Below, in pieces: positions 43,495 to 64,000 of a stretch of DNA of 64,000 nucleotides. Numbering within the stretch: position 1 is the stretch's first letter; each line of letters starts with the position of its first letter. The DNA is from Pseudomonas chlororaphis subsp. aurantiaca. GTDB lineage: Bacteria > Pseudomonadota > Gammaproteobacteria > Pseudomonadales > Pseudomonadaceae. Where the stretch lies: positions 6,758,001 through 6,822,000 of the forward strand of contig NZ_CP059162.1 in the NCBI RefSeq assembly GCF_013466605.1. Reading direction: 5' to 3'. Made by a program: the position numbers and the translations under genes. The notes beneath the pieces are model-generated. The model was not told where the DNA came from. It worked only from the letters and a program-made list of their open reading frames with translations, and made no database searches.

Positions 43495-43495
43495 A

Positions 43496-44206: not shown

Positions 44207-45414
<1,208 letters not shown>

Positions 45415-45446
45415 CGGGGGTCCTCATCGGGGGCTGGGTGGCTGGG

Positions 45447-45866: not shown

Positions 45867-45894
45867 GGTGGGTCACGGATCAGGTTTTATTTAA

Positions 45895-45909
45895 TGTTAT
45901 AGTATAACA
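45895..45909. promoter_or_regulatory. Zur box between dksA2 and the small secreted protein gene
   Basis: TGTTATAGTATAACA is a perfect 15-bp palindrome identical to the core of the gammaproteobacterial Zur consensus (TGTTATAnTATAACA). It lies 29 bases upstream of dksA2 and 77 bases upstream of the divergent secreted-protein gene, so it could repress both. Confidence 0.92.
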
Positions 45910-45985
45910 ATACAAATAAGCCAACCCTCTCTTGCCGCCCGCGACGAAGGGCGGGATGCTTGAGCACCCCTTGCCGAGAACGCCG

Positions 45986-46366: not shown

Positions 46367-46377
46367 GCAGAGCATTT

Positions 46378-46468
46378 TGTAGGAGCGAGGCTTACCCGCG
46401 ATGAACGCTTGCGCGGTATAGCTGATGCACCGCAGCGTCTTCATCGCATGCAAGCTGTGCTCCTACAG
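46378..46468. repeat. REP-type inverted repeat (GTAGGAGC family)
   Basis: TGTAGGAGCGAGGCTTACCC at the left and GTGCTCCTACAG at the right are inverted ends. It lies between two convergent genes. Confidence 0.85.
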
Positions 46469-46482
46469 AAGCCTGGGCGGCG

Positions 46483-47703
46483 TCAGACCTGGGCTTTTTT
46501 CTGCTCCTGCAACCAGGCCATGTAGCTGTTCACCGGCGGGTTCTTCTGGAAGTAGCTCTGCAAGCCCGCGAACAACCCGTCGGCAATCGCCTGCTGGTGC
46601 CGCGCGGTCACCAGGCGCTGGCTGTCGCGGCGGTTGGAAATGAAGCCGGTCTCCACCAGGATCGAAGGCACGTCGGGGGACTTGAGCACCGCGAAACCGG
46701 CCTGTTCCACGCGCTTCTGATGCAGGGTGGTGATGTCCGCCAGGCTGCCCAACACGGTGCTGCCCAACTGCAGGCTGGCGGCGATGGTCGCGTTCATCGA
46801 CATGTCGAGAATCACCCCGGCGAGCATCGGGTCCTTGTCTTTCAGATTGAGCAGGCTGGTGGCGCCCAGCAGGTCGGCGCCGTTCTCCCGCTGCGCCATG
46901 AAGCGCGCCGTGGCCGAGGTGGCGCCACCTTCCGACAACGCATACACCGAGGCCCCGGACGCCGTCAGGCGCGGCGCCGCATCGGCGTGCACCGAGATAA
47001 ACATGTCGGCCTTGTGCTTGCGGGCGATCTCCACCCGCTTGCGCAGCGGCACGAAGAAATCGTCGTTGCGCACCAGCTTCACATCGAAGCCCTTCTCACG
47101 CTTCAGCCGCTTGGCCAGCAGCTGGGCGATCGACAGCACCACATCCTTCTCCCGCTCGCCCCGGGCGCCGACCGCCCCCGGGTCCTTGCCGCCGTGGCCC
47201 GGGTCGACCACGACGATGATGTCGCGCTTGGGATGCGCCCGGTCCGCCGGTGTTTCACGCGGCAAAGCCGGGGCGGTGACCGCTGCGATCTGCTGTGGAA
47301 CACGGCTGGCGTTGCTCAGGTCAAGCACCAACCGGTGGCCCTGGCCGTCCTGGGGCGGCAGCAAAAAGCTGTCGAGCCGCTGCGGTTCGGACAGGTCGAG
47401 GACTATCCGCGTATCGCCCTGGCCAAAGTGCCCGGAACGGATCGAGCGAATCGGCGTGTTGGCCAGGGCCAACTGGCTGAAATCGCCACTGAGCTGCGCG
47501 CCGCTGAGGTCGATGATCAGCCGTTCGGGCGCGCTGAGAGTGAAGGTCTTGTATTGCACCGGCCCACTCAGATCGAGCACCAGGCGCAGCTTGTCGGCTG
47601 AGTTCCATAACCGCAGGTTGCGAATCTGGGTGGCGGATACCCCCAAAGGCAGAACCAAGGCCGCGCTGGCCAACAGCAGGTTGAGCAACTGACGTCTGTG
47701 CAT
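46483..47703 (-). CDS. N-acetylmuramoyl-L-alanine amidase (AmiA/AmiC type)
   Basis: A zinc-dependent periplasmic amidase that cleaves the peptide from MurNAc during cell separation. The 406-residue precursor has a Tat/Sec-type signal (MHRRQLLNLLLASAALVLPL), an N-terminal AMIN domain (residues about 28-130) and an Amidase_3 domain with VVDPGHGGKDPGA near residue 166, SVHADA near residue 240 and the catalytic-type VETGF near residue 360. It is divergent from folE2 across a Zur box 84 bases upstream, as PA5538 is in P. aeruginosa. A second amidase under Zur control presumably backs up the usual zinc enzyme. Confidence 0.93.
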   Translation of the reverse strand: MHRRQLLNLLLASAALVLPLGVSATQIRNLRLWNSADKLRLVLDLSGPVQYKTFTLSAPERLIIDLSGAQLSGDFSQLALANTPIRSIRSGHFGQGDTRIVLDLSEPQRLDSFLLPPQDGQGHRLVLDLSNASRVPQQIAAVTAPALPRETPADRAHPKRDIIVVVDPGHGGKDPGAVGARGEREKDVVLSIAQLLAKRLKREKGFDVKLVRNDDFFVPLRKRVEIARKHKADMFISVHADAAPRLTASGASVYALSEGGATSATARFMAQRENGADLLGATSLLNLKDKDPMLAGVILDMSMNATIAASLQLGSTVLGSLADITTLHQKRVEQAGFAVLKSPDVPSILVETGFISNRRDSQRLVTARHQQAIADGLFAGLQSYFQKNPPVNSYMAWLQEQKKAQV

Positions 47704-47786
47704 GACTTACACCGCAGATTGAGGAGCATCCGTGCTCGATAAGGCTTGGTGAAAAAACGTTCAGGAAAAGGTTTCATCGACCGCAC

Positions 47787-47801
47787 TGTTATAATATAAC
47801 A
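47787..47801. promoter_or_regulatory. Zur box between the amidase gene and folE2
   Basis: TGTTATAATATAACA is a perfect 15-bp palindrome matching the Zur consensus core. It lies 32 bases before the folE2 start and 84 bases before the divergent amidase start, so one operator probably governs both and the whole downstream eight-gene unit. Confidence 0.93.
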
Positions 47802-47832
47802 TGGCGAATTGTTTCCAACGATGGACCTGCTC

Positions 47833-48729
47833 ATGAATGCGCTGACTCTGCCGGATATCGCCGCGCAGGCCGCACGCCAGGCCCTGCCCCTTGAGTGGGT
47901 GGGCATGTGTGGCATTGCCTTACCTGTGTTGTTTGATGGCCAGCGGATTGGCGCAAAAGCGGATGCCGGCGTCAGCCTCGACGATGGCGAAGCACGCGGC
48001 ATTCATATGTCGCGCCTGTATCTGGCACTGGAAATGCTCGAACAGGAAAACCTCACCCCGCGCCTGATGCGCCAGGTACTGCAACGTTTTCTCGACAGCC
48101 ACGACGGTCTGTCCAGCAACGCCTACCTGCGAATTCATACCGATCTGCTGCTGAAACGCCCGGCCTTGATCAGCCCATTGGCCGGCTGGAAAACCTATCC
48201 GGTGAGCATCGAAGCACGTCTGAAAAACGCAATGTTCCACGTGGAACTAAAAATCGAGGTGCCTTATTCCTCTACCTGCCCCTGTTCCGCCGCGCTTTCC
48301 AGGCAGCTGATTCAGCAGCAATTCATCGATGACTTCGCCAACCGGCAGCTACAGCACGAAGACATCCTGGCCTGGCTCGGCTCATCGAAAGGCATAGTCG
48401 CCACCCCTCACAGCCAGCGCAGCAGCGCGCAATTGCAGTTGCGCCTGGACGATTTTCTCGATGAGTTACCGCTGATGGCAGCGATCAACGACGCCGAGGC
48501 CGCCCTCGGTACCGCCGTGCAAACCGCGGTGAAACGCGCCGACGAACAAGCCTTTGCCCTGGCCAATGGGCAAAACCTGATGTTCTGCGAAGACGCCGCG
48601 CGCCGCCTGAACCTCGCCTTGCAACGCTCGCCCGGCATCCGCGCCTTCCAGGTGCGCGTGGTTCACGCCGAAAGCCTGCACGCCCACGACGCGGTAGCGG
48701 AAAGCCGCTGGAACTGGGAGGCCGCATGA
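47833..48729 (+). CDS. folE2: GTP cyclohydrolase IB
   Basis: Makes dihydroneopterin triphosphate for folate using manganese or other metals instead of zinc, replacing FolE when zinc is scarce. The 298-residue protein begins MNALTLPDIAAQ and carries the FolE2 metal-site cysteine region SSTCPCSAALSRQ at residues 147-159 (Cys149 and Cys151), LKIEVPYSSTC before it, and FCEDAARRL near the C-terminus. The ATG at 47833 gives the family N-terminus; an ATG at 47821 and a TTG at 47809 are also in frame. It leads the eight-gene Zur-controlled unit and overlaps the next gene by four bases. A parS-like palindrome lies inside it. Confidence 0.95.
   Translation: MNALTLPDIAAQAARQALPLEWVGMCGIALPVLFDGQRIGAKADAGVSLDDGEARGIHMSRLYLALEMLEQENLTPRLMRQVLQRFLDSHDGLSSNAYLRIHTDLLLKRPALISPLAGWKTYPVSIEARLKNAMFHVELKIEVPYSSTCPCSAALSRQLIQQQFIDDFANRQLQHEDILAWLGSSKGIVATPHSQRSSAQLQLRLDDFLDELPLMAAINDAEAALGTAVQTAVKRADEQAFALANGQNLMFCEDAARRLNLALQRSPGIRAFQVRVVHAESLHAHDAVAESRWNWEAA
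48233..48248. promoter_or_regulatory. parS centromere-like site inside folE2
   Basis: TGTTCCACGTGGAACT contains the 14-bp palindrome GTTCCACGTGGAAC, the exact core of Pseudomonas parS sites bound by ParB. In folE2 it encodes MFHVEL. A second copy lies 14 kb to the right. Confidence 0.8.
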
Positions 48730-49394
48730 TCGTCCTGCAATCGCTGCATTGGGGCGCGCCCGGCCAACCGCTGACGCCAGCGCTCGACCTCGAGCTGAAG
48801 CCCGGCAGCCTGACCGCCATCATCGGTGCCAACGGCTCGGGCAAAAGCAGCCTGCTGAAGGTCATCGCCGGCCTGCAAAAACCCTTGGCCGGGAAAGTCA
48901 GGTTGCAGGTTCCCCGCCGTGGCGGCCTGTCCTTTCTGCCGCAGCAGCAATACCTCGACCGGCAGTTCCCCATCACGCTGCAAGAGCTGGTAGCCGCCGG
49001 CTTCTGGGGCGATCGGCAAAGCTCGCAACAACGTGCCGAACGCCTGCAGCGGGTGCTCGAAGACTGGTGCCTGAGCGGCCTGGAACAACGCCCGTTGATG
49101 GCCCTGTCCGGTGGCGAATTGCAACGCGCCCTGCTCGCCCGCCTGAGCCTCGCCGATGCCCCGCTGTTGCTGCTGGACGAACCCCACGCCGCCCTGGACG
49201 AACTGGGCCAGGCCCTGTTGTGGAAACACATCCACAGCTGGCAGCAGCAAGGCCGCACGCAAATCGTGGTCTGCCATGACCTCGCCGCCGTGCGCCAACA
49301 CACCCCCCAGACCCTGGTGATCAAAGCCAGCGGATGCCTGTTCGGCAGCAGCGAGGAACTGATCGTCCAGCCCCTGCGGATGCAGGTGGCCTGA
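48726..49394 (+). CDS. Metal ABC transporter, ATP-binding protein (ZnuC-like)
   Basis: A 222-residue ATPase of a zinc/manganese importer. Walker A is GANGSGKSS near residue 35, the Q-loop lies in LPQQQYLDRQFPITLQEL, the signature is ALSGGELQRALLARL near residue 133, Walker B is LLLLDEPHAALD near residue 153, and the switch histidine is in VVCHDLAAV. It overlaps folE2 (ATGA) and the permease gene, so its product is made with them. Family membership of the permease and binding protein next door assigns the metal role. This is additional to the standard znuABC, which is not in the window. Confidence 0.93.
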   Translation: MIVLQSLHWGAPGQPLTPALDLELKPGSLTAIIGANGSGKSSLLKVIAGLQKPLAGKVRLQVPRRGGLSFLPQQQYLDRQFPITLQELVAAGFWGDRQSSQQRAERLQRVLEDWCLSGLEQRPLMALSGGELQRALLARLSLADAPLLLLDEPHAALDELGQALLWKHIHSWQQQGRTQIVVCHDLAAVRQHTPQTLVIKASGCLFGSSEELIVQPLRMQVA

Positions 49395-50260
49395 TGCTCG
49401 CCGCCGCCCAGCTCTGGCAACCCTTCCACGAATTCGTGTTCATGCGCCGGGCGTTGCTCGGCGGCCTGGTGCTGGCGTGCAGCACCGCGCCGCTGGGGGT
49501 GTTTCTGATCCTGCGGCGCATGAGCCTGATCGGCGACGCCGTGGCCCATGGCATTCTTCCCGGCGCGGCGCTGGGCTTCTGGTTCGCCGGGTTGAGCCTG
49601 CCGGCGCTGACCTTCGGCGGCCTCGGTGCCGGCCTGGGCATGGCCGGGCTGGCCGCCTGGATTACCCGGCGCACCGGTTTGCGCGAAGACGCCAGCCTGG
49701 CCGCGATCTACCCGATTTCCCTGGCCAGCGGCGTGCTGATTCTCGGCCTCGCCGGCAAGCGCCTGGACCTGCTGCACCTGCTGTTCGGCTCGGCCCTGGC
49801 GGTGGATGGGCCGACCCTCGACGGCATGCTCTGGGTCTCCGGGTTCAGCCTGGTGGCCATGGCGCTGATCTACAAAGCGTTGCTGCTGGACACCCTCGAC
49901 CCGCTGTTCCTCAACAGCGTCAGCCGCCTCGGCCCCCTCGCCCATGGCCTGTTCCTGACCCTGGTGGTGCTGAACCTGGTGATCGGTTTCCAGGCCATCG
50001 GCGCCTTGATGGTGGTCGGCCTGATGATGCTGCCGGCCGCCGCCTCACGCTTCTGGAGTCGCCGCCTGCCGGTGCTGATCGGCATTGCCGCGCTGCTCGG
50101 CTGCCTCTCGGTATGGCTCGGCCTGTTGCTGTCGTTCCACTACTCGCTACCCAGCGGCCCGGCCATCGTCCTGGTGGCTGGCGGCCTGTATCTGCTGTCC
50201 GTGGTGTTCGGTCCGGTGCACGGTCTGCTGCGCCGCCCGCCTTTGCTCACATCCCCATGA
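49394..50260 (+). CDS. Metal ABC transporter permease (ZnuB/MntB family)
   Basis: A 288-residue inner-membrane permease of the ABC-3 family with about eight hydrophobic segments. FMRRALLGGLVLACSTAPLG near residue 17 and RRMSLIGDAVAHGILPGAAL near residue 40 are typical, as is the coupling region RTGLREDASLAAIYPISLAS near residue 95. Its ATG shares an A with the stop of the ATPase gene (TGATG). It imports metal with the neighbouring ATPase and binding protein. Confidence 0.94.
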   Translation: MLAAAQLWQPFHEFVFMRRALLGGLVLACSTAPLGVFLILRRMSLIGDAVAHGILPGAALGFWFAGLSLPALTFGGLGAGLGMAGLAAWITRRTGLREDASLAAIYPISLASGVLILGLAGKRLDLLHLLFGSALAVDGPTLDGMLWVSGFSLVAMALIYKALLLDTLDPLFLNSVSRLGPLAHGLFLTLVVLNLVIGFQAIGALMVVGLMMLPAAASRFWSRRLPVLIGIAALLGCLSVWLGLLLSFHYSLPSGPAIVLVAGGLYLLSVVFGPVHGLLRRPPLLTSP

Positions 50261-50271
50261 GGTGTTCCCCG

Positions 50272-51156
50272 ATGCGCGCCCTACTCGTGCTCTTCAGTCT
50301 GTTGCTGCCGTTGTCGCTGTCGCCCGCCCAGGCGGCGGACAAACTCGCAGTGGTCACCAGCTTCAGCATTCTCGCCGACATCACTCGACAGGTCGGCGGC
50401 GAGCACATCCGGATCACCGACATGGTCGGCCCGGACGCCGACGCCCACACCTACGAACCGACGCCGGACGATGCCAAGGCACTGCTCAAGGCCCGGCTGA
50501 TCATCAAGAACGGCCTGGGTTTCGAGCCCTGGCTGGATCGCCTGGTGGCCAGTACCGCCACCCAGGCTCCGGTGATCACTGCCAGTCGCGGGGTGATCCC
50601 ACGTTCGCTGGATGAGGACGGCGAGACCATTCCCGACCCTCACGCCTGGCACAACCTGGCGAACGCCGAGCTCTATGTGAGCAACATCACCAGGGCGCTG
50701 GTGGCCGCCGACCCGGCGAACAAGGCCGACTACGAACGCAACAGCCAGGCCTACCTGAAACGGATCTACGCGCTGTTGGCCGAGGCCAAGGCCAAGTTCG
50801 GCGCGCTGCCGCCGGGCAACCGCAAGATCGTCACCTCCCACGACGCCTTCGGTTACCTGGGGCAGGCCTACGGCATCGACTTCATGGCCCCACAGGGTCT
50901 GTCCACCGAGCGCGAACCCTCGGCTGCCGAAGTCGCCGCTCTGATCACCCAGATCCGCAACGCCAAGGTCAAGGCGGTGTTCATGGAGAACATCAAGGAC
51001 GCACGCCTGCTCAAGCAGATTGCCGACGAAAGCGGCGCCCACATCGGCGGCACCCTGTACTCCGACGCCCTCGCCGCCAAGGGGCCGGCCAGCACGTTCA
51101 CCGGGTTGTTCGAATACAACCTGAACACCCTGTACGACGCCCTGAGCCAGCCATGA
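50272..51156 (+). CDS. Metal ABC transporter, periplasmic binding protein (ZnuA/TroA family)
   Basis: A 294-residue precursor with signal peptide MRALLVLFSLLLPLSLSPAQ-A. It is a cluster A-I metal-binding protein with ligands expected in DADAHTYEPTPDDAKAL (His near residue 62), IPDPHAWHNLAN (His near residue 125), EREPSAAEVAAL (Glu near residue 215) and GGTLYSDAL (Asp near residue 265). The histidine-rich loop typical of high-affinity ZnuA is absent, so zinc or manganese are both possible; Zur context favours zinc. The ATG at 50272 is preferred over 50257 because GAGGTG lies 8 bases before it. Confidence 0.93.
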   Translation: MRALLVLFSLLLPLSLSPAQAADKLAVVTSFSILADITRQVGGEHIRITDMVGPDADAHTYEPTPDDAKALLKARLIIKNGLGFEPWLDRLVASTATQAPVITASRGVIPRSLDEDGETIPDPHAWHNLANAELYVSNITRALVAADPANKADYERNSQAYLKRIYALLAEAKAKFGALPPGNRKIVTSHDAFGYLGQAYGIDFMAPQGLSTEREPSAAEVAALITQIRNAKVKAVFMENIKDARLLKQIADESGAHIGGTLYSDALAAKGPASTFTGLFEYNLNTLYDALSQP

Positions 51157-51590
51157 ACAAGCGCCCTCCACTGTCGATGCTCGACCTGGAAAGCGCGCCC
51201 CTGGGCAGCCGTTGGCCGCTCACCGGCGTGCTCGATGCCCTGCCATGGAATGCCGACGGCCTGATCGCCGCCATCGCCCAGCAGCACGACAGCGGCGACG
51301 TGCTGATGCTGGCCTGGATGAATCGCAGGGCGCTGGCCGAGACCCTGGCCAGCGGGCAGGTCTGCTACTGGTCGCGCTCGCGCCTGCAGCTGTGGCGCAA
51401 GGGCGAAAGCTCGGGGCATCGCCAGCGTCTGCTCGAAGCACGCCTGGACTGCGACGGCGACGCCGTCCTGCTGCTGGTGGATCAGCAAGGCCCGGCCTGC
51501 CACACCGGGCGCCCCAACTGTTTTTACAACGCCATTCGCGACGGCGCGGTGCAGGTCATCAGCGCACCGCTACAGGAAACCCCAGCATGA
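51153..51590 (+). CDS. hisI2: Phosphoribosyl-AMP cyclohydrolase paralogue
   Basis: Third step of histidine synthesis. The 145-residue protein holds MLAWMNRRAL near residue 50, YWSRSRLQLWRKGESSGHRQ near residue 71, LDCDGDA and GPACHTGRPNCFY. The three zinc-ligand cysteines are present as Cys100, Cys116 and Cys123, with the 16- and 7-residue spacing of characterised HisI. It overlaps both neighbours by four bases. A second HisI in a Zur-controlled operon is known from comparative work on zinc-responsive paralogues. Since its ligands are kept, it may differ in affinity rather than in need for zinc. The ordinary hisI lies elsewhere. Confidence 0.9.
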   Translation: MNKRPPLSMLDLESAPLGSRWPLTGVLDALPWNADGLIAAIAQQHDSGDVLMLAWMNRRALAETLASGQVCYWSRSRLQLWRKGESSGHRQRLLEARLDCDGDAVLLLVDQQGPACHTGRPNCFYNAIRDGAVQVISAPLQETPA

Positions 51591-52147
51591 TTCGCAAGAA
51601 CCCTTCCGGCGATCTGCCGGTCATCGCCGAGTCGGCCTACGTCGACAAGACCGCCATCATCTGCGGCAAGGTGGTGATCGGCGAGAACGTCTTCGTCGGC
51701 CCCTACGCGGTGATCCGCGCCGACGAAGTCAACGAACACGGCGCCATGGACCCGATCGTCATCGGCGCCAATTCGAACATCCAGGACGGCGTGGTGATCC
51801 ACTCCAAATCCGGCGCGGCGGTGACCATCGGCGAGTTCACCTCCATCGCCCACCGCTCCATCGTCCATGGCCCGTGCACGGTCGGCGACCGGGTATTCAT
51901 CGGCTTCAACAGCGTGCTGTTCAACTGCGCGGTCGGCAACGGCAGCGTGGTGCGGCACAACTCGGTGGTCGATGGCCGCGACCTGCCGCAAGGCTTCTAC
52001 GTGCCCTCCACCACCCGCATCGGGCCCAATACCGACCTCTCGCAGTTCCCGCCGGTCAGCGTCAGCGCCTCGGAGTTTTCCGAAGACGTGGCGCGCACCA
52101 ATGTCGATCTGGTGCGCGGTTACAAAGCCCTGCAGAACGAGTTCTGA
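51587..52147 (+). CDS. Gamma-class carbonic anhydrase family protein
   Basis: A 186-residue left-handed beta-helix protein of the gamma carbonic anhydrase group: hexapeptide turns IICGKVVIGENVFVGPYAVI, NIQDGVVIHSKSG near residue 72 and FTSIAHRSIVHGPCTVGDRV near residue 90, which supply the three metal-binding histidines. It could hydrate carbon dioxide using iron or cobalt instead of zinc, replacing zinc-dependent beta enzymes. Four-base overlap with hisI2 and a 2-base gap to the next gene place it in the Zur unit, as in P. aeruginosa PA5540. Confidence 0.92.
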   Translation: MIRKNPSGDLPVIAESAYVDKTAIICGKVVIGENVFVGPYAVIRADEVNEHGAMDPIVIGANSNIQDGVVIHSKSGAAVTIGEFTSIAHRSIVHGPCTVGDRVFIGFNSVLFNCAVGNGSVVRHNSVVDGRDLPQGFYVPSTTRIGPNTDLSQFPPVSVSASEFSEDVARTNVDLVRGYKALQNEF

Positions 52148-52149
52148 AC

Positions 52150-53487
52150 ATGAGCAGCGTGCTGATTCGCAACGCCCGGCTGGTCAATGAAGGACACGAG
52201 TTCGACGCCGACCTGCTGGTGGACCATGGGCGCATCGTGAAGATCGCCAGCAGCATCGAAGGCGGGAATGCCCGCACCGAGATCGATGCCCAGGGCCAGT
52301 GGCTGGTGCCGGGCATGATCGACGACCAGGTGCATTTCCGCGATCCCGGCGCGCCGGAGAAAGGCAGCTTCTACAGCGAGTCGCGCGCGGCCGTGGCGGG
52401 TGGCATCACCAGTTTCATGGACATGCCCAACACCCAGCCTGCGACCCTGACCCTGGCCGCGCTGGAGGACAAGAAACGCCGCGCGGCCATCCACTCGGTG
52501 GCCAACTACGGCTTTCACTTCGGCGTCAGCCGCGACAACCTCGACACCGTCGCCGCCCTCGACCCGTGCCTGGTGGCCGGGGTCAAAGTGTTCATGGGCG
52601 CCTCCACCGGCAACATGCTGGTGGACGATCCGCAGATCCTGGAGCGGCTGTTCGCCGAGGTGCCGACCATTCTCCTGGCGCACTGCGAACACACGCCCAG
52701 CATCCAGGCCAACGAGCAGCGCATGCGGGAACGTTTCGGCGAAGCGATTCCCGCCGTGGCCCACCCCCTGATCCGCGATGCCGAAGCCTGCTACCGCTCC
52801 TCGTCGCTGGCCGTGGATCTGGCCAGGCGTCACGGCACTCGCCTGCATGTCTTGCACCTGACCACCGCCCGCGAACTTGCACTGTTCGAAGACAAGCCGC
52901 TGGCGCAAAAGCGCATCACCGCCGAAGTCTGCCTGCACCATTTGCTGTTCGACGACCGTGACTACGCGCGCCTCGGGCACCTGATCAAGTGCAACCCGGC
53001 GATCAAGACCCGCGCCGACCGCGACGCCCTGCGCCAGGCCCTGCTCGGTAACCGCCTGGATGTGATCGGCAGCGATCACGCGCCACATACCTGGGCGCAA
53101 AAGCAACTGCCCTACCGACAGGCGCCCGCCGGGCTGCCGCTGGTGCAACACGCCCTGCCCGCCCTGCTGGAGCTGGTGGCCGACGGCGTGCTGCCCATCA
53201 CCACCCTGGTGGAGAAAACCAGCCACCGGGTCGCCGACCTGTTCGCCATTCCCGACCGTGGCTACCTGCGCGAGGGGTACTGGGCCGACCTGGTGCTGAT
53301 CAGGCCCGAGCCCGAAGGCATCGCCGTGGCCCGGCAGCCGATCCTCGCCCAGTGCGGCTGGACGCCCTTCGCCGAACGGCATTTCCGGCACAGCGTTGCT
53401 ACCTCCCTGGTGTCGGGACAACTGGCCTGGCACGCCGGGCACCTGTACGACAACTGCCAGGGTTTGCCGCTGCGTTTTACCCGCTGA
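52150..53487 (+). CDS. Dihydroorotase paralogue (PyrC2/PyrQ type)
   Basis: A 445-residue amidohydrolase of pyrimidine synthesis (carbamoyl aspartate to dihydroorotate). Metal-site region DDQVHFRDPG has Gln60 where most dihydroorotases have the first histidine of HxH, while His62 is kept. AGVKVFMGASTGNML near residue 142 holds the lysine that bridges metals, LAHCEHTPS and LHVLHLTTA supply histidines, and GSDHAPHTW near residue 315 the catalytic aspartate. It is the Zur-controlled paralogue of PA5541 type. Gln at position 60 suggests a changed metal site, but this form is also seen in other subfamilies. Confidence 0.9.
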   Translation: MSSVLIRNARLVNEGHEFDADLLVDHGRIVKIASSIEGGNARTEIDAQGQWLVPGMIDDQVHFRDPGAPEKGSFYSESRAAVAGGITSFMDMPNTQPATLTLAALEDKKRRAAIHSVANYGFHFGVSRDNLDTVAALDPCLVAGVKVFMGASTGNMLVDDPQILERLFAEVPTILLAHCEHTPSIQANEQRMRERFGEAIPAVAHPLIRDAEACYRSSSLAVDLARRHGTRLHVLHLTTARELALFEDKPLAQKRITAEVCLHHLLFDDRDYARLGHLIKCNPAIKTRADRDALRQALLGNRLDVIGSDHAPHTWAQKQLPYRQAPAGLPLVQHALPALLELVADGVLPITTLVEKTSHRVADLFAIPDRGYLREGYWADLVLIRPEPEGIAVARQPILAQCGWTPFAERHFRHSVATSLVSGQLAWHAGHLYDNCQGLPLRFTR

Positions 53488-53528
53488 GCCCTTTCCCCGA
53501 ATCCCCCTGAAACACCAAGGAACACCCG

Positions 53529-55427
53529 ATGATTCACATCACCCTGCCCGACGGCTCGCAACGCGAGTACGACCAGCCGCTTTCCGTATACGAGGTGGCC
53601 GCGAGCATCGGCCTCGGCCTGGCCAGGGCGGCCGTCGCCGGCCGGGTGAACGATCAACTGTTGGATTGCTCCTTTGTGCTCGAAGGCGATGCCCGGGTCA
53701 GCATCGTCACCGCTCGCGAGCCCGAGGGCCTGGAGATCCTGCGCCACTCCTGCGCGCATCTGCTGGCCATGGCGGTGAAGGAGTTGTACCCCTCGGCCCA
53801 GGTCACCATCGGCCCGGTGATCGAGGACGGCTTCTTTTACGACTTTGCCTACGAACGGCCCTTCACCCCCGACGACCTGGAGCGCATCGAAGCGCGCATG
53901 ATCCGGCTGGCCGCGACCAACCATGCGGTGCGCCGACGCGAGCTGTCCCGTGACGACGCCCTTGAATACTTCGGCAACCTCGGCGAGCACTACAAGGCCG
54001 AACTGATCCGCGACATCCCGCAAGACCAGGTACTGTCGCTGTACCGCCAGGGCGATTTCGAAGACCTGTGCCGGGGCCCACACGTGCCGTTCACTGGAAT
54101 CTTGCAGGCGTTCAAGCTGACCAAGGTCGCCGGCGCCTACTGGCGCGGCGATGCCAAGAACGCGCCGCTGCAACGGATCTACGGCACTTGCTGGGCTACG
54201 CCGAAAGACCTCAAGGATTACCTGACCCGCCTGGAAGAAGCCGGCAAGCGCGACCATCGCAAGCTTGGGCAGCAACTGGACCTGTTCCATTTCGACGACT
54301 GCGCGCCGGGCTCGGTGTTCTGGCACGCCAAGGGCTGGACCCTGTTCCAGCAACTGATCGGCTACATGCGCCAGCGCCAGGATCAGGCCGGTTATCAGGA
54401 AGTGAATACCCCGGACGTGATGGACCGCAACCTCTGGGAAACCTCCGGGCACTGGCAGAACTATCGCGACCACATGTTCAGCACCACCACCGAGGACCAG
54501 CGGATGTTCGCCCTCAAGCCGATGAACTGCCCCGGCGCGGTGTCGATCTTCAGCCGTGGCCTGAAAAGCTACCGCGACCTGCCGCTGCGCATCGCCGAGT
54601 TCGGCAAGGTGCATCGCTACGAACCCTCCGGTGCGTTGCACGGGTTGCTGCGAGTGCGCCACTTCACCCAGGACGACGCGCACATCTTCTGCACCCCGGC
54701 GCAAATGCAGGCGGAATGCGAGAGCACCATCGCCCTGGTGTTCGACATCTATCGCGACTTCGGCTTCCACGAGGTCGCGGTCAAGCTCTCCACCCGGCCA
54801 GCCCATCGCATCGGCAGCGACGCAGTGTGGGACCAGCTGGAAGGCGCCTTGTCCGGCGCCCTGGAAACCATGGCGATCGACTACCGGATCAACCCCGGCG
54901 AAGGCGCGTTCTACGGCCCGAAACTGGAGTTCGTGCTACGCGATGCCATCGGCCGCGACTGGCAATGCGGCACCCTGCAGGTCGACCTCAACCTGCCGGA
55001 ACGTTTCGATATCAGCTACATCGACGAGCACGGCGAACGTCAACGCCCGGTGATGCTGCATCGTGCGCTGTTCGGTTCCCTGGAACGTTTTATCGGCATT
55101 CTCATCGAGCATTACAGCGGCGCCCTGCCGTGCTGGCTGGCGCCACGGCAGGCGGTGGTGATCACCATCAGCGAAGGCCAGGCGGACTACGCCCGCTCGG
55201 TGGCCGACACCCTGCAGCGCCAGGGTTTGCGGATCGGCGCCGACCTGCGCAACGAGAAGATCAGCTACAAGATCCGCGAACACAGCCTACAAAAGGTGCC
55301 GTACCTGCTGGTGGTGGGCGAGAAGGAAAAGGACGGGGGATTCGTCAGTTTGCGCAGCCGCCATGGCGAGGATCTGGGGCGGTGGCCAGTGAGCGAGGTG
55401 GCCGAGCAGATGCGCTCGGCGTTGTAG
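53529..55427 (+). CDS. thrS2: Threonyl-tRNA synthetase paralogue
   Basis: Charges tRNA-Thr. The 632-residue protein has a TGS domain (1-62), the editing domain with [16 protein letters not shown] near residue 73, the class II catalytic core with motif 2 [17 protein letters not shown] near residue 357, and an anticodon-binding domain to the end. The three zinc ligands of E. coli ThrRS are kept at identical positions: Cys334, His385 and His511. AAGGAA precedes the ATG. It lies 41 bases after the dihydroorotase gene as the last member of the Zur-controlled unit. Being in that unit and distant in small details from normal ThrRS marks it as a second copy. Confidence 0.92.
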
Positions 55428-57756: not shown

Positions 57757-58944
57757 TCACGAGTAATACAAGTCGTCGCGAGTCCAGGGCAGTTCATGAC
57801 TGCCATCGGCGTGAGTCTTGACCGCGAGAATCTGGTGCAGGTTGATCCAGCCGCGGGCGAAGGCATAGGCGCAGCCGGCCAGGTACAGGCGCCAGATGCG
57901 CAGGACCTGCTCCGGCACCAGCCGGGAGGCGGCTTCCAGATTGTCTTCCAGGCGCTCGCTCCAGTGGTCCAGGGTGCGGGCGTAATGCAGGCGCAGGCTT
58001 TCCACGTCGACGATCTCCAGCCCCGCTTCGCTGATCTCGGCCGAGATCATCGCCAGGTGCGGCAGCTCGCCGTTGGGGAACACATACTTCTCGATGAAGT
58101 CACCGGCCCCACGGCCCACTGGACGTCCATCAGTGTGCTTGGCGGTAATCCCATGGTTCATCACCAGGCCGCCTTCGCGCACCGCGCCGAACAGCGTCTT
58201 GCAGTACTGCGCCAGGTTGGCGTGGCCCACATGCTCGAACATGCCGACACTCACCACCTTGTCGAAGCGGCCGTCCTGGGGCAGGTCGCGATAGTCCAGC
58301 AGTTGCAGTTCCACCTGGTCCTGCAAGCCTTCGGCGATCACCCGCTCCCTGGCCAGCGCCAGTTGTTCCTTGCTCAGGGTGATACCGAATACCTTGGCCC
58401 CGAACTCCCGCGCCGCGTAGCGCGCCAGCCCGCCCCAACCACAACCGACGTCCAGCAGGTATTCGCCGGGCTGCAAGCGCAACTTGCGGCACAGGTGGCG
58501 GAATTTGGCTTGCTGGGCCTGTTCCAGGCTTTCACTGCCGGTCTCGAAATAGGCACAGGAATAGGCCATGTCGCTGTCGAGCCACAGCTGGTAGAAATCG
58601 TTGGAAAGGTCGTAGTGGTAGGAGATGGCAGCCGCGTCGGTGGCCTTGTCGTGCAGGGTGCGTACCGGCAGCGCTTGTTCCTCGCCGTCCAGCAGTGCCT
58701 GGCTCAGTTCGTCGCAGACCCGGATGACTTCGCTGATCGAGCCTTCCAGCTCAAGCTTGCCCTCGACGAACGCCGCCCCCAGCGAGTCGAGAGTGGGATG
58801 GGTGAGCTGGGTGACCAGTTGCGGGTCCTTGACCACAATGGTGACGCTGGGCGCCGGCCCCAGGTTGAATTCATGGCCGTCCCAGAGTCGCAGGCGTAGC
58901 GGTAGTTGCAGATTCTGTAAGGCCGGTGGAAGTTGCGCGAGCAT
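57757..58944 (-). CDS. Cyclopropane-fatty-acyl-phospholipid synthase family methyltransferase
   Basis: Uses S-adenosylmethionine to add a methylene bridge to unsaturated membrane lipids. The 395-residue protein has the SAM-binding motif LLDVGCGWGGLARYAAREFG near residue 162, ISYHYDLSNDFYQLWLDSDM near residue 105, SVGMFEHVGHANLAQYC near residue 228 and FIEKYVFPNGELPHLAMI near residue 283, all typical of CFA synthases. It is convergent with cardiolipin synthase, 10 bases apart, so both membrane-lipid genes end together. A perfect palindrome sits close upstream of its start. Confidence 0.93.
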   Translation of the reverse strand: MLAQLPPALQNLQLPLRLRLWDGHEFNLGPAPSVTIVVKDPQLVTQLTHPTLDSLGAAFVEGKLELEGSISEVIRVCDELSQALLDGEEQALPVRTLHDKATDAAAISYHYDLSNDFYQLWLDSDMAYSCAYFETGSESLEQAQQAKFRHLCRKLRLQPGEYLLDVGCGWGGLARYAAREFGAKVFGITLSKEQLALARERVIAEGLQDQVELQLLDYRDLPQDGRFDKVVSVGMFEHVGHANLAQYCKTLFGAVREGGLVMNHGITAKHTDGRPVGRGAGDFIEKYVFPNGELPHLAMISAEISEAGLEIVDVESLRLHYARTLDHWSERLEDNLEAASRLVPEQVLRIWRLYLAGCAYAFARGWINLHQILAVKTHADGSHELPWTRDDLYYS

Positions 58945-59277: not shown

Positions 59278-61182
59278 CTACAACTTGAGCAACGGCTCCT
59301 GGAAACGCAGCAAACGCCCGGCATTGCCCAGCACCAGCAAGGTGCTGAGGTTATGCAGCACCGCCGCGATCATCGCCCCCGCCGCGCCGAGCCAGCCAAA
59401 CGCGGCGAAGGCGACTATGGCCAGGGTCCAGCCCAAGCCGATGATCACATTCACTTGCAGGGTCTGGCGGCATTGGTGGCTCAGGCGCACACAGGTGCCG
59501 AGGCGCCGCAGGTCGCTGCCGATCAGCACGATATCGGCCGATGCCAGGGCAATGTCCGCCCCGCCCGCCCCCATGGCCACACCGACCACGCCCGCCTTGA
59601 GCGCCAGGGAATCATTGATCCCGTCGCCCACCACCATCGGCCGGAAACCGCTGTCGATTTCCCCCAGCACACGCTTGAGTTTGTCTTCCGGCAGCGCCTG
59701 GGCTTCGACATCGCCGATGCCGACATCCCGCGCCAGGCTGTCGGCCACACTCTGGCGGTCGCCGGTCAGCAACAGCTGGCGACCCAGCCCCAGGTCACGC
59801 AGTTCGTCGAGGGCAAAACGCGCCTCCGGCTTGACGCTGTCGGCCAGCAACAGCCAGGCGAGAAAGTCACCGTTCAATGCCAGCCCGGCAATCGGTCCGT
59901 CATGTTCGGGCACCGCCGTGGTGGCGATGCCGAGCTGGCCGAACAACTCGGGCCGCCCCAGGGCCGCTTCGCCCTGCTCGGTCTGCGCTACTACTCCGAG
60001 GCCCTGGCGCTCGCGAATATCCGACAACACCAGGAAATGCTCCTGGGCCACCAACCCGGCCAGCGCCCGGCTGACCGGATGGCTGCTGGCCGAACCGAGG
60101 CTGGCCGCCAGGTTCAACAAGGCCTGGCGGTCTTCCTGCGGGCTGTCGATGGATTGCAGGCGCAAGGTGCCGAACGTCAGGGTGCCGGTCTTGTCCACCA
60201 CCAGCGAGGTCAGGTCCGCCAGTTCCTCGAGGAACGCCGAGCTGCGAATCAGGATGCCGTGACGCGCCGCCACGGCGATTCCGGCAATCGCCGTGGCCGG
60301 CGCGGACAGCACCAGGGCGCAGGGACAGGCCGCCACCAGCACCGCGAGCATCGCCTGGGCATCGTTGGTGATGAACCAGGTCACCGCCGCCAGCAGCAAC
60401 ACCAGCACCATGTAGCTGCCGGCATAACGTTCGAGCAAACGGGTAATCGGCGGCTTGGAACGCTCGGCGCTTTGCATCAGCGCGATGACCTTGCCCAGGG
60501 TCGATTCGTGGCCGGTGCGGGTCACTTCCAGGCGCAACAGGCCGTCGAGGTTGATCGCCCCGCCGAACACCTGCATGCCGACATCGGCCTCCAGCGGCAC
60601 CGACTCGCCAGTGATCGGCGCAGTGTCGAGGCTGGCCTGCCCGGACAGCACCAGGCCGTCGGCGGGCACCCGGTCGCCGGCGCGCACCTCGACGATATCG
60701 CCGGCCTTGAGCGTGGCGTTGTCCACCTCGCCAATGCTGCCGTCGGCCTGCACCAGGCGCGCATGGCTGCGGGTCAAACGGCCCAGAGCATGAATGGCTT
60801 CCTGGGAACCGATGACACTGCGCTCTTCCAGCACGTGGCCGAAGATCATGATGATCGGCAACAGCGCCGCGGTCAGCAGGTCGCCGGTGGCCCAGGCACC
60901 GAGCATGGCCAGGGCGATCAACTGGTCGGTGATGCCGTGCAGGCTCGGGTAACGCAGGCTGTACCAGGCCGAACGCATCACCGGCAGCGCCACCAGCAAC
61001 GAAGCAAAACCCAGCAGCAACTGGCTGACACCGGTCTGCTCCGGGGCCAGCCAGCGCCAGACCAGGCCCAGGCCGAGCAGCCCCAGGGCCAGCATGGCCA
61101 GGGTCAGCTGGCGCGCGGCGCTGCGTTGTTCAGCGGAAGTCAGCATGCTCGCCGGCGCGGCGGCATGGGTGTGGGCAGTCAT
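59278..61182 (-). CDS. Heavy-metal P1B-type ATPase without metal-binding N-terminal domain
   Basis: A 634-residue inner-membrane pump that moves a transition metal using ATP. It has LDTAPITGESVPLEADVG near residue 187, the membrane metal motif CPCALVLSAP near residue 285, phosphorylation site DKTGTLTFG near residue 329, a SSHPVSRAL nucleotide-domain HP near residue 363, and GDGINDSLALK near residue 520. The last membrane helix reads LHNLSTLLVLGNAGRLL, resembling CtpC-like zinc/manganese pumps more than copper pumps. The heavy-metal-associated domain is absent; only a short MTAHTHAA start is there. Its ATG overlaps the stop of the upstream SPFH gene. Direction and ion are inferred. Confidence 0.92.
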   Translation of the reverse strand: MTAHTHAAAPASMLTSAEQRSAARQLTLAMLALGLLGLGLVWRWLAPEQTGVSQLLLGFASLLVALPVMRSAWYSLRYPSLHGITDQLIALAMLGAWATGDLLTAALLPIIMIFGHVLEERSVIGSQEAIHALGRLTRSHARLVQADGSIGEVDNATLKAGDIVEVRAGDRVPADGLVLSGQASLDTAPITGESVPLEADVGMQVFGGAINLDGLLRLEVTRTGHESTLGKVIALMQSAERSKPPITRLLERYAGSYMVLVLLLAAVTWFITNDAQAMLAVLVAACPCALVLSAPATAIAGIAVAARHGILIRSSAFLEELADLTSLVVDKTGTLTFGTLRLQSIDSPQEDRQALLNLAASLGSASSHPVSRALAGLVAQEHFLVLSDIRERQGLGVVAQTEQGEAALGRPELFGQLGIATTAVPEHDGPIAGLALNGDFLAWLLLADSVKPEARFALDELRDLGLGRQLLLTGDRQSVADSLARDVGIGDVEAQALPEDKLKRVLGEIDSGFRPMVVGDGINDSLALKAGVVGVAMGAGGADIALASADIVLIGSDLRRLGTCVRLSHQCRQTLQVNVIIGLGWTLAIVAFAAFGWLGAAGAMIAAVLHNLSTLLVLGNAGRLLRFQEPLLKL

Positions 61183-62237
61183 GGTTGGGCTCCCTGAATG
61201 ATCAGGCGGGAATCGTCTTGGGGATTGACCGTGGTCACCGAGCCGGCCTGGCCGAGAATCTTCGGCAGCCGTTCACGGTAGATGCGCAGGAGCATTTCCG
61301 GGTCGGTGCCGTTGTGTTGCGCCTGGGCCAGGCTCTGGATGGTCGCGGTATCCGCCTGGGCCTTGGCCAGGCGTTCACCGGCCTGGGCGTGCGCCACCTG
61401 CAAGGTGCGGTCGGCCTGTTCGTTGGCGGTTTGCGTGAGTTTTTCGGCTTCGGTGCGCGCGTTGGCCACCGCCTTGTCGGCTTGCTGGCTGGCGGTCAGC
61501 ACCGCGTTGAAAGCGCTGACCGCCGGCCCCGGCAGACTGGACTGGACGTCGACCCGAGTCACCTCGATGCCGATCCCCTGCCCGGTCGCCGCCAGATCCG
61601 CCAGCCGTTGGTTGATGCCTTGCACCAGATCGCCGCGCAGCCGTTCGCGACGCTCGGCGGCCTGATTGTCGGCCCCGATCAGTTCCGGACGCGCCACCAG
61701 GATGGTGTCGAGATCGCGGGCGGCGGTCAGGGCCAGGGCACTGCGGGTCACCAACCGATCCAGTGCCGGCAACACATGTTCGCCCTGCAGCACGAAGGCA
61801 TAAGGCTCGGTGACCTTGTAGAACACCCGCACATCCAGCTGCACCACCCCGGCGTCGCCGGTCAGCAGGTAACCGGAACCGGCCAGGGCATCGCTCAGGG
61901 GCACGGCGAAACTTGCCACCTTGTCACCCTTTAACGCCGCATCGGAACGCAGCAGGCTTTCCACCCGCCGCTCGATCACCCGGTCCGCGGCGGGCAACAG
62001 CACCACCTGTTCGAACGGCTGCGGCCAGGCCAGCAACAAGCCGGCGTTCTGGATGCGGTCCAGCGCACCGAAATGCAGGACCACCGCACGGTTCTGTGGA
62101 TCGATCTGTCGCACATTGGAAAACGCCCAGGCCAGGGCTGCCAGTACGGTCACCGCGTACAGAGCGAGAAACGCCAGGCGACCGGCCTGAATCCACGGGC
62201 TGCCAAGTTCATGTGTTCCACGTGGAACCAAACTCAT
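61179..62237 (-). CDS. SPFH-domain membrane protein (HflK-like), coupled to the metal ATPase
   Basis: A 352-residue membrane protein with one N-terminal transmembrane helix (residues about 20-40) and an SPFH/Band 7 domain (IDPQNRAVVLHFGALDRIQN near residue 45; VVQLDVRVFYKVTEPYAFVL near residue 130), then a long coiled coil rich in Ala, Gln and Glu (KAVANARTEAEKLTQTANEQ near residue 250). This is the HflK/stomatin layout. It overlaps both neighbours by four bases (ATGA). The true HflKC belongs to another locus and partners FtsH; this copy instead sits with a metal pump, so a membrane-scaffold or assembly role for the pump is inferred. A parS-like palindrome covers codons 4-8. Confidence 0.88.
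   Translation of the reverse strand: MSLVPRGTHELGSPWIQAGRLAFLALYAVTVLAALAWAFSNVRQIDPQNRAVVLHFGALDRIQNAGLLLAWPQPFEQVVLLPAADRVIERRVESLLRSDAALKGDKVASFAVPLSDALAGSGYLLTGDAGVVQLDVRVFYKVTEPYAFVLQGEHVLPALDRLVTRSALALTAARDLDTILVARPELIGADNQAAERRERLRGDLVQGINQRLADLAATGQGIGIEVTRVDVQSSLPGPAVSAFNAVLTASQQADKAVANARTEAEKLTQTANEQADRTLQVAHAQAGERLAKAQADTATIQSLAQAQHNGTDPEMLLRIYRERLPKILGQAGSVTTVNPQDDSRLIIQGAQP
62214..62229. promoter_or_regulatory. parS centromere-like site in the SPFH gene start
   Basis: TGTTCCACGTGGAACC contains the perfect palindrome GTTCCACGTGGAAC and matches the 16-bp parS form known from P. aeruginosa. It lies within the first codons of the leftward SPFH gene. The other copy is at 48233. Confidence 0.85.
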
Positions 62238-63280
62238 GGTTGCGACCCGGCGGCTTTATTACCGAGGGTCGGCGGCCCGTCCACCAGCACCCGGAATGGC
62301 GCCGCATCGGTGCGCAGAATCAGCTTGGTGCCCGGGGTCACCACAGTGCCCAAGGTGTCCAGCGAGCGCAGCAGGTTGTACAGCTGCGGCGAACCGGCGT
62401 AGGCGCGGCCGTAGATCTCCGCCGCCTGCACCCGGGATTGGGCTTCGATATCCGCCGCTTTCACCGTGGCGTCGGCCTGGACGATGCGCGCATCGCGCTC
62501 GGCGGCGGAACGGATTTGCGCCGCTTCGCGCTTGCCGATGGCCGTGCGTTCGGTGGCGATGGTTTCACGCTCGGCGCGCATGCGGTCGACGGTGGCGGTC
62601 AGGGTCACCGAGGGCAGGGTCAGGCGTTCCACGCCGACTTGCAGCACGCGCACGCCATAGGTGCTCAGCAACTGCTGTTCGATCTGTTTGCGCAACTGGG
62701 CTTCGAAGTCGGCGATGCGCACCTTGCTCGCGTCGGTGTTCACCAGATTGGCCAGGTCGAAACTGCTGGCGGTGGTTTCCAGGGCCGAGCCGACAAAGGT
62801 GCGGATCTGCCGCGCCGCTTCGTCCGGCTGGTTCTGCACCGCGCGCATAAAGCGCTTCACGTTGTCCGGATCGCCCTGCACCTGCCACGCCACATAGGCC
62901 TGGACGATGATGCGCAGACCGTCGCGGGTGCCGACATCCTGCAAACCGCTGGACGTGGTGCGCAGGCGCAGGTCCACCGGGATCGCCGCCTCGAACGGTG
63001 CCGGCCAGCGCCAGCCGAGGCCCGGCTCCAACAGCACGCGCGCCGGGTTGCCGAAACGGGTGATCACCGTGGCCTCGCCGGAACGCACTTGCACCAGGCT
63101 CGCCGCGGCAATGGCGAACAGCACCAACAACAGCGCCCAGGCCATGCGCCGCCAGGGAAAGGGCCCCGCCTCTTCCGACGCGCCGTGGTGGTGATGATGG
63201 TGCCCGTGATGGTGATAGCCACCGTGGCCGTGATCGTGGCCGGTGTGATCCTGATGATCGTGGGAATGGGACTGGCTCAA
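62234..63280 (-). CDS. SPFH-domain membrane protein with histidine-rich N-terminus
   Basis: A 348-residue membrane protein. The first 32 residues hold 16 histidines (HSHDHQDHTGHDHGHG, then runs of three and six His), a likely metal-binding tail in the cytoplasm. A transmembrane helix follows near residues 46-64 (MAWALLLVLFAIAAASLVQV), then an SPFH domain (ATVITRFGNPARVLLEPGLG) and a coiled coil (RAERETIATERTAIGKREAA, near residue 235), as in HflC. Start is a TTG at 63280 with CAGGAG 7 bases upstream, overlapping the stop of the preceding gene. It stands between another SPFH gene and HflK-like and ATPase genes, so it may gather metal for, or from, the pump. Confidence 0.88.
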   Translation of the reverse strand: MSQSHSHDHQDHTGHDHGHGGYHHHGHHHHHHGASEEAGPFPWRRMAWALLLVLFAIAAASLVQVRSGEATVITRFGNPARVLLEPGLGWRWPAPFEAAIPVDLRLRTTSSGLQDVGTRDGLRIIVQAYVAWQVQGDPDNVKRFMRAVQNQPDEAARQIRTFVGSALETTASSFDLANLVNTDASKVRIADFEAQLRKQIEQQLLSTYGVRVLQVGVERLTLPSVTLTATVDRMRAERETIATERTAIGKREAAQIRSAAERDARIVQADATVKAADIEAQSRVQAAEIYGRAYAGSPQLYNLLRSLDTLGTVVTPGTKLILRTDAAPFRVLVDGPPTLGNKAAGSQP

Positions 63281-64000
63281 TGGACGGCTCCTGGCTGAGC
63301 GGTGTTACCCGGCACCGAAGGCTCGGTCGGCAAAGTGAATGTACGCAGGTCGAGGGTCGGTGCGTTGGCGCCGCCCAGGCGATGATCGAGCACCAGCAAC
63401 TTGGCGTTGCGCAGGCCCTGGCTCAGCTGGCTCAAATACTGCTCCAGCACGAACGCCTGGCCGGCGCTGGCGTAGGCCTTCTGTTCGGCGCTGAAACGCA
63501 GGCCGGCCGCTTGCGCCGTGGCCTGTACTTCATGGGCCGTGGCCTGGGCCTGGTCGCGGGCGATGCTGGCCTGCAACTGCGCCTGGTTGGTCTGCTCGCT
63601 GGCCGCGCCGTGCTCGCGGGAAATCAGCGCCTGGGCGCCGATCTGCGCGGCCTGGACACCGTGATAGGCATTGGCGGCGCCCGCCGGCGGGTGAATGGCC
63701 TCGACCACGGTGGCGAGAATCTCCACCCCGCTGTCGAGTTTCTCCAGGTCGGCCTGCACCGCGCGGCCGATATCCTCGGCCAGGCTGCCACGGTCTTCGC
63801 CCAACAGGCCATCGAGGGTGCGCGAGGCAAAGTCGTGGACCAGGATGCGGCTGGCGGTGCTGCGGATCAGCATCGGAATGTCGGCGCTGTTGTAGGTCGC
63901 CGCCAGCGCCGCCTTATCGCTCAGGCCGATGCGATAGACGAAGCGCACGTCCATGTTGACGATCTGGAAGCTCTGTTTGTCGGCACTGCCGCTGGCGATC
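63277..64000 (-). CDS. SPFH-like membrane protein, 5' part outside the window
   Basis: The last 240 residues of a protein that continues past the window edge; there is no start codon needed inside since the frame is open to the end. The visible part begins in an SPFH domain (FQIVNMDVRFVYRIGLSDKA; ASRILVHDFASRTLDGLLGE; GVEILATVVEAIHPPAGAAN) and then an Ala/Gln-rich coiled coil. It is the third SPFH-type protein of the operon and the first in the direction of transcription within view. Four-base overlap with the next gene shows coupling. The operon promoter lies outside the window. Confidence 0.8.
   Translation of the reverse strand, partial: IASGSADKQSFQIVNMDVRFVYRIGLSDKAALAATYNSADIPMLIRSTASRILVHDFASRTLDGLLGEDRGSLAEDIGRAVQADLEKLDSGVEILATVVEAIHPPAGAANAYHGVQAAQIGAQALISREHGAASEQTNQAQLQASIARDQAQATAHEVQATAQAAGLRFSAEQKAYASAGQAFVLEQYLSQLSQGLRNAKLLVLDHRLGGANAPTLDLRTFTLPTEPSVPGNTAQPGAVH

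What the first reader, a model, noticed from the sequence alone, without database searches (positions are those of the whole stretch)
59278..64000. Operon of three SPFH proteins, one histidine-rich, coupled to a metal P-type ATPase
Four genes on one strand overlap by four bases each: partial SPFH, histidine-rich SPFH (16 His in the first 32 residues), HflK-like SPFH and a P1B ATPase without its usual N-terminal metal-binding domain. HflK/HflC-type proteins normally hold FtsH; here no protease is present. A reasonable reading is that SPFH scaffolds assemble a membrane patch around the pump, and that the histidine tail supplies the metal-binding function the ATPase lacks. The neighbouring zinc island hints at zinc. 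I know of no characterised system with this exact set, but cannot search.
Basis: partly seen in the sequence, partly recalled or inferred. Interest (0 to 1): 0.82.

Follow-up and report, generated by a model that had tools for sequence, protein, structure and literature searches.

The report
Zinc-pump operon with three scaffold proteins
The four genes look like this Pseudomonas's version of the known zinc/copper pump (hmtA) cluster, in which three membrane-scaffold proteins, one with a histidine-rich tail, travel as one unit with the pump behind a zinc-starvation-type switch; what the scaffolds do for the pump is untested.

Summary
Confirmed: a minus-strand operon S1 (SPFH, completed beyond the window edge, 655 aa), S2 (HflC-like; 16 His in its first 32 residues, none elsewhere), S3 (HflK-like) and a P1B ATPase without HMA domain, with 4-base overlaps. 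The set is not unknown: its order is that of the P. aeruginosa hmtA cluster (PA2439-PA2434), published as induced by zinc depletion, with Zur shifting the PA2439 promoter; HmtA is reported as a Zn/Cu importer. The same SPFH trio was deleted in PA14 in 2026 (PaFlo5-7) with subtle phenotypes; I found no metal assay in the passages read and no mention of hmtA. ATPase group and S1 occur in the same 19 of 148 Pseudomonadaceae genomes; the operon recurs in two other families, one in another class (28 of 28 genomes found). A Zur-like box precedes S1 in most relatives. The His tail is constant on S2, while the ATPase's own His tail is lineage-variable, so 'the tail replaces what the pump lacks' is only partly right. 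S1's N-terminal membrane domain is modelled CDF/ZnT-like, without CDF ligands. Best reading: a Zur-controlled, SPFH-enclosed zinc-acquisition pump; the enclosure is inferred.

The parts
63277..64000 (-). S1: first SPFH gene (position of PA2439/PaFlo5), 3' part; the full gene is window 63277-65244, beyond the edge. Membrane domain with about six TM, a seventh TM, then SPFH domain
   Evidence: Zur-like box GTTATATCGTAAC at C1:6823322-6823334 (78-90 b upstream of the start, outside the window)
62234..63280 (-). S2: HflC-like SPFH protein with histidine-rich N-terminal tail, TTG start, one TM (residues 47-65)
   Evidence: TTG start in 65 of the 71 loci (of 95) whose tail the script captured
63182..63280 (-). 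histidine-rich tail of S2 (residues 1-33, 16 His), predicted cytosolic
61179..62237 (-). S3: HflK-like SPFH protein, one TM (residues 21-39)
59278..61182 (-). HmtA-group P1B ATPase, no HMA domain; CPC in TM6, DKTGT, HNLST in TM8
60319..60327 (-). CPC motif of the ATPase (residues 286-288)
45896..45908 (.). Zur-like palindrome GTTATAGTATAAC in the zinc island (comparison site)
47788..47800 (.). Zur-like palindrome GTTATAATATAAC between amidase (46483-47703) and folE2 (47809-48729) (comparison site)

Best explanation
This is an hmtA-type operon: a Zur-controlled module for zinc (and possibly copper) acquisition. Shown here: the four genes are a single inherited and probably sometimes transferred unit with a Zur-like promoter element. 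From the literature on P. aeruginosa: induction by zinc starvation, Zur binding in vitro, and HmtA as Zn/Cu importer. Inferred: S1, S2 and S3 co-assemble through periplasmic SPFH domains into an HflK/C-type wall or dome whose client is HmtA instead of FtsH; S1 anchors it with a polytopic domain of CDF-like fold; the His tail of S2, on the cytosolic face (in many lineages joined by a His tail on HmtA), takes up or senses zinc at the pump's exit.
For: Co-occurrence: ATPase group (973-1331 bits; next listed P1B 298.8) in 19 of 148 Pseudomonadaceae genomes and S1 in the same 19, within 5 kb. Genus of G126: 13 of 25. S2 profile across the phylum: 11 of 398, all 11 with the ATPase; 3 lie outside Pseudomonadaceae (one in another class) with the same gene order; 8 of their 9 gene junctions overlap by 4 or 8 bases, one has a 2-base gap. 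Pairwise identities of the four proteins rank alike over 16 loci (Spearman 0.91-0.96). Zur-like box: GTTATA...TAAC exact in 71 of 86 S1 upstream regions, within one mismatch in 82 of 86, against 0.06% and 1.6% of shuffles; a stricter form has 6 places in the genome, two others of them in the zinc island. His tail: 11-20 His in the 92 of 95 loci where a script read it, 8-10 in the three distant operons. Topology: hydropathy gives 7 TM in S1, 1 each in S2 and S3; the side is by HflK/C homology and recalled HflK/C topology. Expression: PMC4542158 Table 2, PMC8531726 EMSA, PMC11761036.
Against: No direct evidence for a complex. AF2 models of the SPFH parts are poor (S1 mean pLDDT 55.5, S2 43.0). 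Deleting the SPFH trio in PA14 gave only subtle effects; the passages I saw use LB or M9 without metal limitation (PMC13086221). Import by HmtA rests on overexpression and a review asks for confirmation; the same review says Zur bound the promoters of all zinc-uptake genes except hmtA (PMC10393844), although the primary paper reports a shift of the PA2439 promoter; there hmtA mRNA stayed low and was not repressed by zinc (PMC8531726). In PMC11761036 only some of the increases are significant. The Zur-like box is poor (two mismatches) in 4 of 86 regions, among them G126 (L138), L141 and the copy from another class (L168). No P. aeruginosa record itself could be compared. The tail lies where an importer releases metal, so its role is unclear.
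Confidence: 0.55

Rival explanations
1. The trio is an alternative HflK/C that controls FtsH (a zinc protease) during zinc starvation; HmtA merely supplies zinc from the same operon.
For: S2 and S3 are closest in the PDB by sequence to HflC and HflK; published annotation calls them HflC/HflK and PMC11761036 points to the zinc protease HflB.
Against: They fall below the curated HflK/HflC cut-offs (92.0 vs 134.4; 91.6 vs 159.4). A canonical HflK/C-like pair is present in the same genome. In the surveys the trio goes with HmtA; FtsH is nearly universal (stated in PMC13086221), so it cannot explain the patchy distribution.
Confidence: 0.15
2. HmtA exports: under zinc starvation it moves Zn or Cu into the periplasm inside an SPFH-walled chamber, metallating a periplasmic client or removing mismetallating copper; the cytosolic His tails collect metal on the entry side.
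For: Its nearest solved relatives are named Cd, Zn and Cu transporters or efflux ATPases; the His tails are predicted cytosolic, the entry side of an exporter.
Against: Co-induction with zinc-uptake systems and Zur binding; published hypersensitivity and metal accumulation on overexpression of HmtA (Lewinson 2009 as summarised in PMC10393844).
Confidence: 0.13
3. Regulatory convenience: SPFH proteins and pump are co-expressed under zinc starvation but act separately (membrane maintenance versus transport).
For: SPFH trio mutant shows only subtle phenotypes; no interaction data seen.
Against: Linkage in 28 of 28 genomes found, same order in other families, and a His-rich tail on an SPFH protein in every operon whose tail could be read.
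Confidence: 0.12

Closest known systems
hmtA cluster of Pseudomonas aeruginosa (PA2439-PA2434)
   Same: Order of three HflK/C-annotated genes then the ATPase, Zur-linked promoter; ATPase 80% identical to that of G126, which I take for P. paraeruginosa PA7 from its length of 6,588,339 (the match to PA7 is recalled)
   Different: Here no gene between S3 and the ATPase (position of PA2436); ATPase tail has 2 His where G126 has 7; a cfa-like gene and, in this lineage, the zinc island follow
PaFlo5-PaFlo6-PaFlo7 of P. aeruginosa PA14 (PMC13086221)
   Same: PA14_33070/33080/33110 = PA2439/2438/2437 per PMC9431628, the same SPFH trio by position
   Different: The paper has no hit for hmtA or P-type ATPase and reports the trio in 2 of 10 other Pseudomonas species; here it is in 11 of 19 same-genus genomes including the own one and in named P. 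fluorescens isolates
HflK/HflC-FtsH assembly (PDB 7vhp, 7wi3, 9cz1)
   Same: SPFH domain with N-terminal TM, operon of HflK- and HflC-like proteins; an SPFH cage round a membrane ATPase (passages of PMC13220708)
   Different: Three proteins, client presumably a P1B pump, no protease gene, His-rich tail, polytopic S1
CDF/ZnT zinc transporters (YiiP, ZnT1, ZnT3)
   Different: No sequence similarity found and no DxxxD/HxxxD ligands in TM2 and TM5 of 13 S1 sequences

Membership tests
HmtA (P1B importer group) | Orthology to PA2435 | tested here: inconclusive
   Clear group at 67-100% identity apart from other P1B and 80% to G126, but no named P. aeruginosa sequence was compared; G126 as PA7 is recalled from its length
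HmtA (P1B importer group) | Synteny with three HflK/C-like genes | tested here: met
   compared with PMC4542158 Table 2
HmtA (P1B importer group) | Inward transport of Zn/Cu | not testable with these tools
   Needs transport assays
Zur regulon | Zur box at the operon promoter | tested here: met
   Motif match and conservation; binding itself published only for the PA2439 promoter (PMC8531726)
HflK/HflC equivalogs | Score above NCBIfam TIGR01932/TIGR01933 cut-offs | tested here: not met
   S2 92.0 < 134.4; S3 91.6 < 159.4; S1 3' part 46 < 159.4
HflK/HflC equivalogs | SPFH (Band_7) domain | tested here: met
HflK/HflC equivalogs | Binding to FtsH | not testable with these tools
   Needs pull-down
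P1B-2 (ZntA type) | CPC in TM6 | tested here: met
P1B-2 (ZntA type) | TM8 Asp ligand and TM7 Lys (roles recalled) | tested here: not met
   In the alignment to 4umv the H of HNLST stands at the Asp of ADTGAT and T at the Lys of LGLKG; CPC with HN.ST combines a ZntA-like TM6 with a TM8 like HEGST of 7qbz
CDF transporters (S1 N-domain) | Six-TM CDF fold | tested here: inconclusive
CDF transporters (S1 N-domain) | Metal ligands DxxxD/HxxxD in TM2 and TM5 (recalled) | tested here: not met
   Absent by reading 13 diverse S1 sequences; no Cation_efflux Pfam hit in 37 members

The most novel reading that the evidence does not exclude
The operon encodes an SPFH enclosure dedicated to a metal pump: S1 is a degenerate CDF zinc-transporter domain fused to an SPFH domain, which together with S2 and S3 forms a periplasmic dome that confines zinc at the mouth of HmtA, while the constant His tail of S2 receives or gauges zinc on the cytosolic side.
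Probability: 0.3. Interest if true: 0.82.

Novelty: new variant of a known kind. Interest (0 to 1): 0.55.

Why it matters
SPFH proteins are widespread but, outside HflK/C-FtsH, few bacterial ones have a known client (recalled). The linkage shown here names a candidate client (HmtA) and a condition (zinc starvation) for a trio that was recently deleted in P. aeruginosa with only subtle phenotypes. It could also help explain how an unusual P1B pump works in zinc acquisition. The hypothesis can be tested directly with simple deletions in zinc-poor medium.

Tried and rejected

S1 relative in G283 (E 3.4e-11): a canonical HflK/HflC locus, not this operon.

Class-wide ATPase (1 of 369) and S1 searches (2 of 369: own and G283) and the order-wide ATPase search (4 of 194, all Pseudomonadaceae) suggested that the operon is confined to Pseudomonadaceae; the phylum-wide S2 profile search showed that this was a sampling gap. 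Larger samples score only 3-6 candidates per genome, so misses are possible. S3 was never searched alone, and S2 relatives weaker than E 1e-45 were not looked at.

Zur box: the pattern was chosen after looking at these sequences, the regions are related and the shuffles keep single-base composition only. The genome-wide control, the pattern read backwards, gave 2 matches. In the window count palindromes score on both strands.

Rows dropped before counts: S2 tail unread in L008 (pattern miss; visible), L016 (contig end) and L027 (frame); 12 of 95 loci had no recognised S1 start and were left out of the Zur count, three distant loci were added, hence 86. ATPase tails were first read in 91 of 95, then in 95 of 95 with a wider pattern.

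Papers: passages seen in PMC4542158, PMC8531726, PMC10393844, PMC8456098, PMC11761036, PMC9431628, PMC13220708 and PMC2636767; abstract, passages and section 3.2 of PMC13086221. Lewinson 2009 is not held and is known here only from memory and from the review passages. Statements on what is not in print rest on searches only.
Full report
WHAT IS THERE. The window lies at C1:6758001-6822000 of a 6.95-Mb genome close to P. chlororaphis (best named relatives Pseudomonas sp. NFIX28 98% and P. chlororaphis PCL1601 95% for the ATPase). On the minus strand run S1, S2, S3 and a P1B ATPase, each overlapping the next by 4 bases. S1 is cut by the window edge; its frame ends at window 63277 and, from the start used by its annotated relatives (655 aa), begins at window 65244. 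S2 carries all of its 16 His within residues 5-32. Pfam finds Band_7 in S1, S2 and S3 and no HMA domain in the ATPase. The ATPase keeps CPC, DKTGT and TGE; in TM8 it has HNLST, aligned to HEGST of 7qbz, with its His at the Asp of the ZntA ADTGAT segment.

WHAT IT IS. P. aeruginosa PA2439-PA2434 has the same order: PA2439 HflK family, PA2438 HflC, PA2437 HflC family, PA2436, PA2435 HmtA, PA2434. The five listed genes (PA2436 is not in the table) rose 5.6- to 14.4-fold in a znuA mutant, with a weak predicted Zur site (E 0.11) (PMC4542158). Purified Zur with zinc shifted the PA2439 promoter, yet hmtA mRNA stayed low and was not repressed by zinc (PMC8531726). Proteome data show rises on zinc depletion, significant for some of the proteins only (PMC11761036). 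HmtA is described as a Zn/Cu P-type importer, with the caveat that this needs confirmation, and the same review calls hmtA an exception to Zur binding (PMC10393844). In the sampled relatives the ATPase group stands clear: 19 genomes at 973-1331 bits, the next listed P1B at 298.8. The version in G126 (length 6,588,339, which I recognise from memory as P. paraeruginosa PA7) is 80% identical. No named P. aeruginosa sequence was available, so orthology to PA2435 rests on this and on gene order.

S1 was searched in the same 148 Pseudomonadaceae genomes as the ATPase: 19 hits each, the same 19 genomes, in three genera, within 5 kb of each other; S3 and at least part of S2 were seen beside the ATPase in these loci. 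The genus of G126 gave 13 of 25, of which 6 were new, and all 6 had S1, S2 and S3 next to the ATPase. A profile of S2 found 11 of 398 genomes across the phylum at E <= 1e-45; 8 were known, and 3 belong to other families, one of them in another class. All three carry the operon in the same order; 8 of 9 junctions overlap by 4 or 8 bases, one has a 2-base gap, and S2 of L166 is interrupted by a stop. So all 28 distinct genomes found have the set. The genomes are related, so this is not 28 independent events, and S3 was not searched alone. The spread into other families suggests transfer of the whole unit (not tested by trees). The ranks of pairwise identity agree between the four proteins (Spearman 0.91-0.96 over 16 loci; pairs are not independent).

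REGULATION. The box TCGTTATATCGTAACGA lies upstream of S1, outside the window. GTTATANNRTAAC occurs at six places in the genome: upstream of S1, twice in the zinc island of the window (45896, 47788) and at three others; the control, the pattern read backwards, has 2 matches. In the window, GTTATANNNTAAC with up to 2 mismatches has 13 matches against a mean of 3.8 and a maximum of 12 in 100 shuffles, palindromes counting twice. Across loci, GTTATA...TAAC is exact in 71 of 86 upstream regions (69 of 69 in the P. fluorescens-type set) and within one mismatch in 82 of 86, against 0.06% and 1.6% of shuffled regions; L135, L138, L141 and L168 have only a two-mismatch match, which 15% of shuffles also reach. 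P. aeruginosa-type operons mostly have GTTATAAGGTTAC or similar. L168, from another class, has a different inverted repeat.

HISTIDINE TAILS. S2 has 11-20 His before its TM in the 92 of 95 loci readable by script, and 8, 8 and 10 in the three distant operons. The ATPase tail has 0-2 His in 81 of 81 P. fluorescens-type loci (0 in 64) but 4-12 in 14 of 14 other Pseudomonadaceae operons; in the distant operons it has 1, 2 and 9. The S2 tail is therefore the constant part. HflC-like topology (one TM, positive N-flank; homology; periplasmic SPFH domain of HflK/C recalled) puts it in the cytosol.

MECHANISM. Most likely, zinc starvation lifts Zur; S1-S3 form an HflK/C-like periplasmic wall whose client is HmtA; HmtA moves zinc inward; the cytosolic His tail of S2 accepts, buffers or senses it. 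Shown: operon, linkage, conserved box, constant tail. Published for P. aeruginosa: induction, Zur binding in vitro, reported uptake. Inferred: assembly, client, role of tail. The wall could keep metal released by periplasmic carriers near the pump or protect the pump; the data do not separate these.

KNOWN OR NEW. The cluster is known and partly characterised. PMC13086221 (2026) deleted the trio as PaFlo5-7 and reports subtle phenotypes (about 20% less biofilm, attenuated Galleria virulence); the text has no hit for hmtA or P-type ATPase, its one zinc hit concerns FtsH, and its metal hits are metalloprotease and a general remark. Hinderhofer 2009 (PMC2636767) has no hit for ATPase or metal. 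In the listings of searches and the passages read I saw no proposal of SPFH-HmtA coupling and no description of the His tail. I therefore call it a new variant of a known kind: a known metal-pump operon whose scaffold part had not been linked to the pump in what I could search.

Noticed in passing
window 42372-55427: Zinc island with CobW/COG0523-type protein, amidase, FolE2, an ABC ATPase and a ThrS, plus frames that look by eye like gamma-carbonic anhydrase and dihydroorotase, with two Zur-like palindromes; resembles the PA5532-PA5541 cluster named in PMC4542158.
   Followed up: partly
window 57757-58944: Cyclopropane fatty-acid synthase-like gene directly after the ATPase; a close relative lies in the flank of 80 of 80 named loci but in none of the 17 other loci.
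   Followed up: partly
L136:10155-10607: In 9 of the 14 other Pseudomonadaceae operons about 600 bases separate S3 and the ATPase; in L136 they hold a 150-aa frame with a likely signal peptide (by eye) and no Pfam match, at the position of PA2436.
   Followed up: partly
L168, upstream of 10560: The operon copy from another class has an inverted repeat GATACGTAATAACGTATC in place of the GTTATA...TAAC box.
   Followed up: no
L166:7714-8697: S2 is interrupted by an in-frame stop in this genome, while its relative L167 has one open frame there; S3 in L056 and S2 in L027 also match only in part.
   Followed up: no
G000:C1:716961, 1363335, 5461544: Three further exact GTTATANNRTAAC sites elsewhere in the genome; the frames beside them do not obviously relate to zinc.
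   Followed up: no
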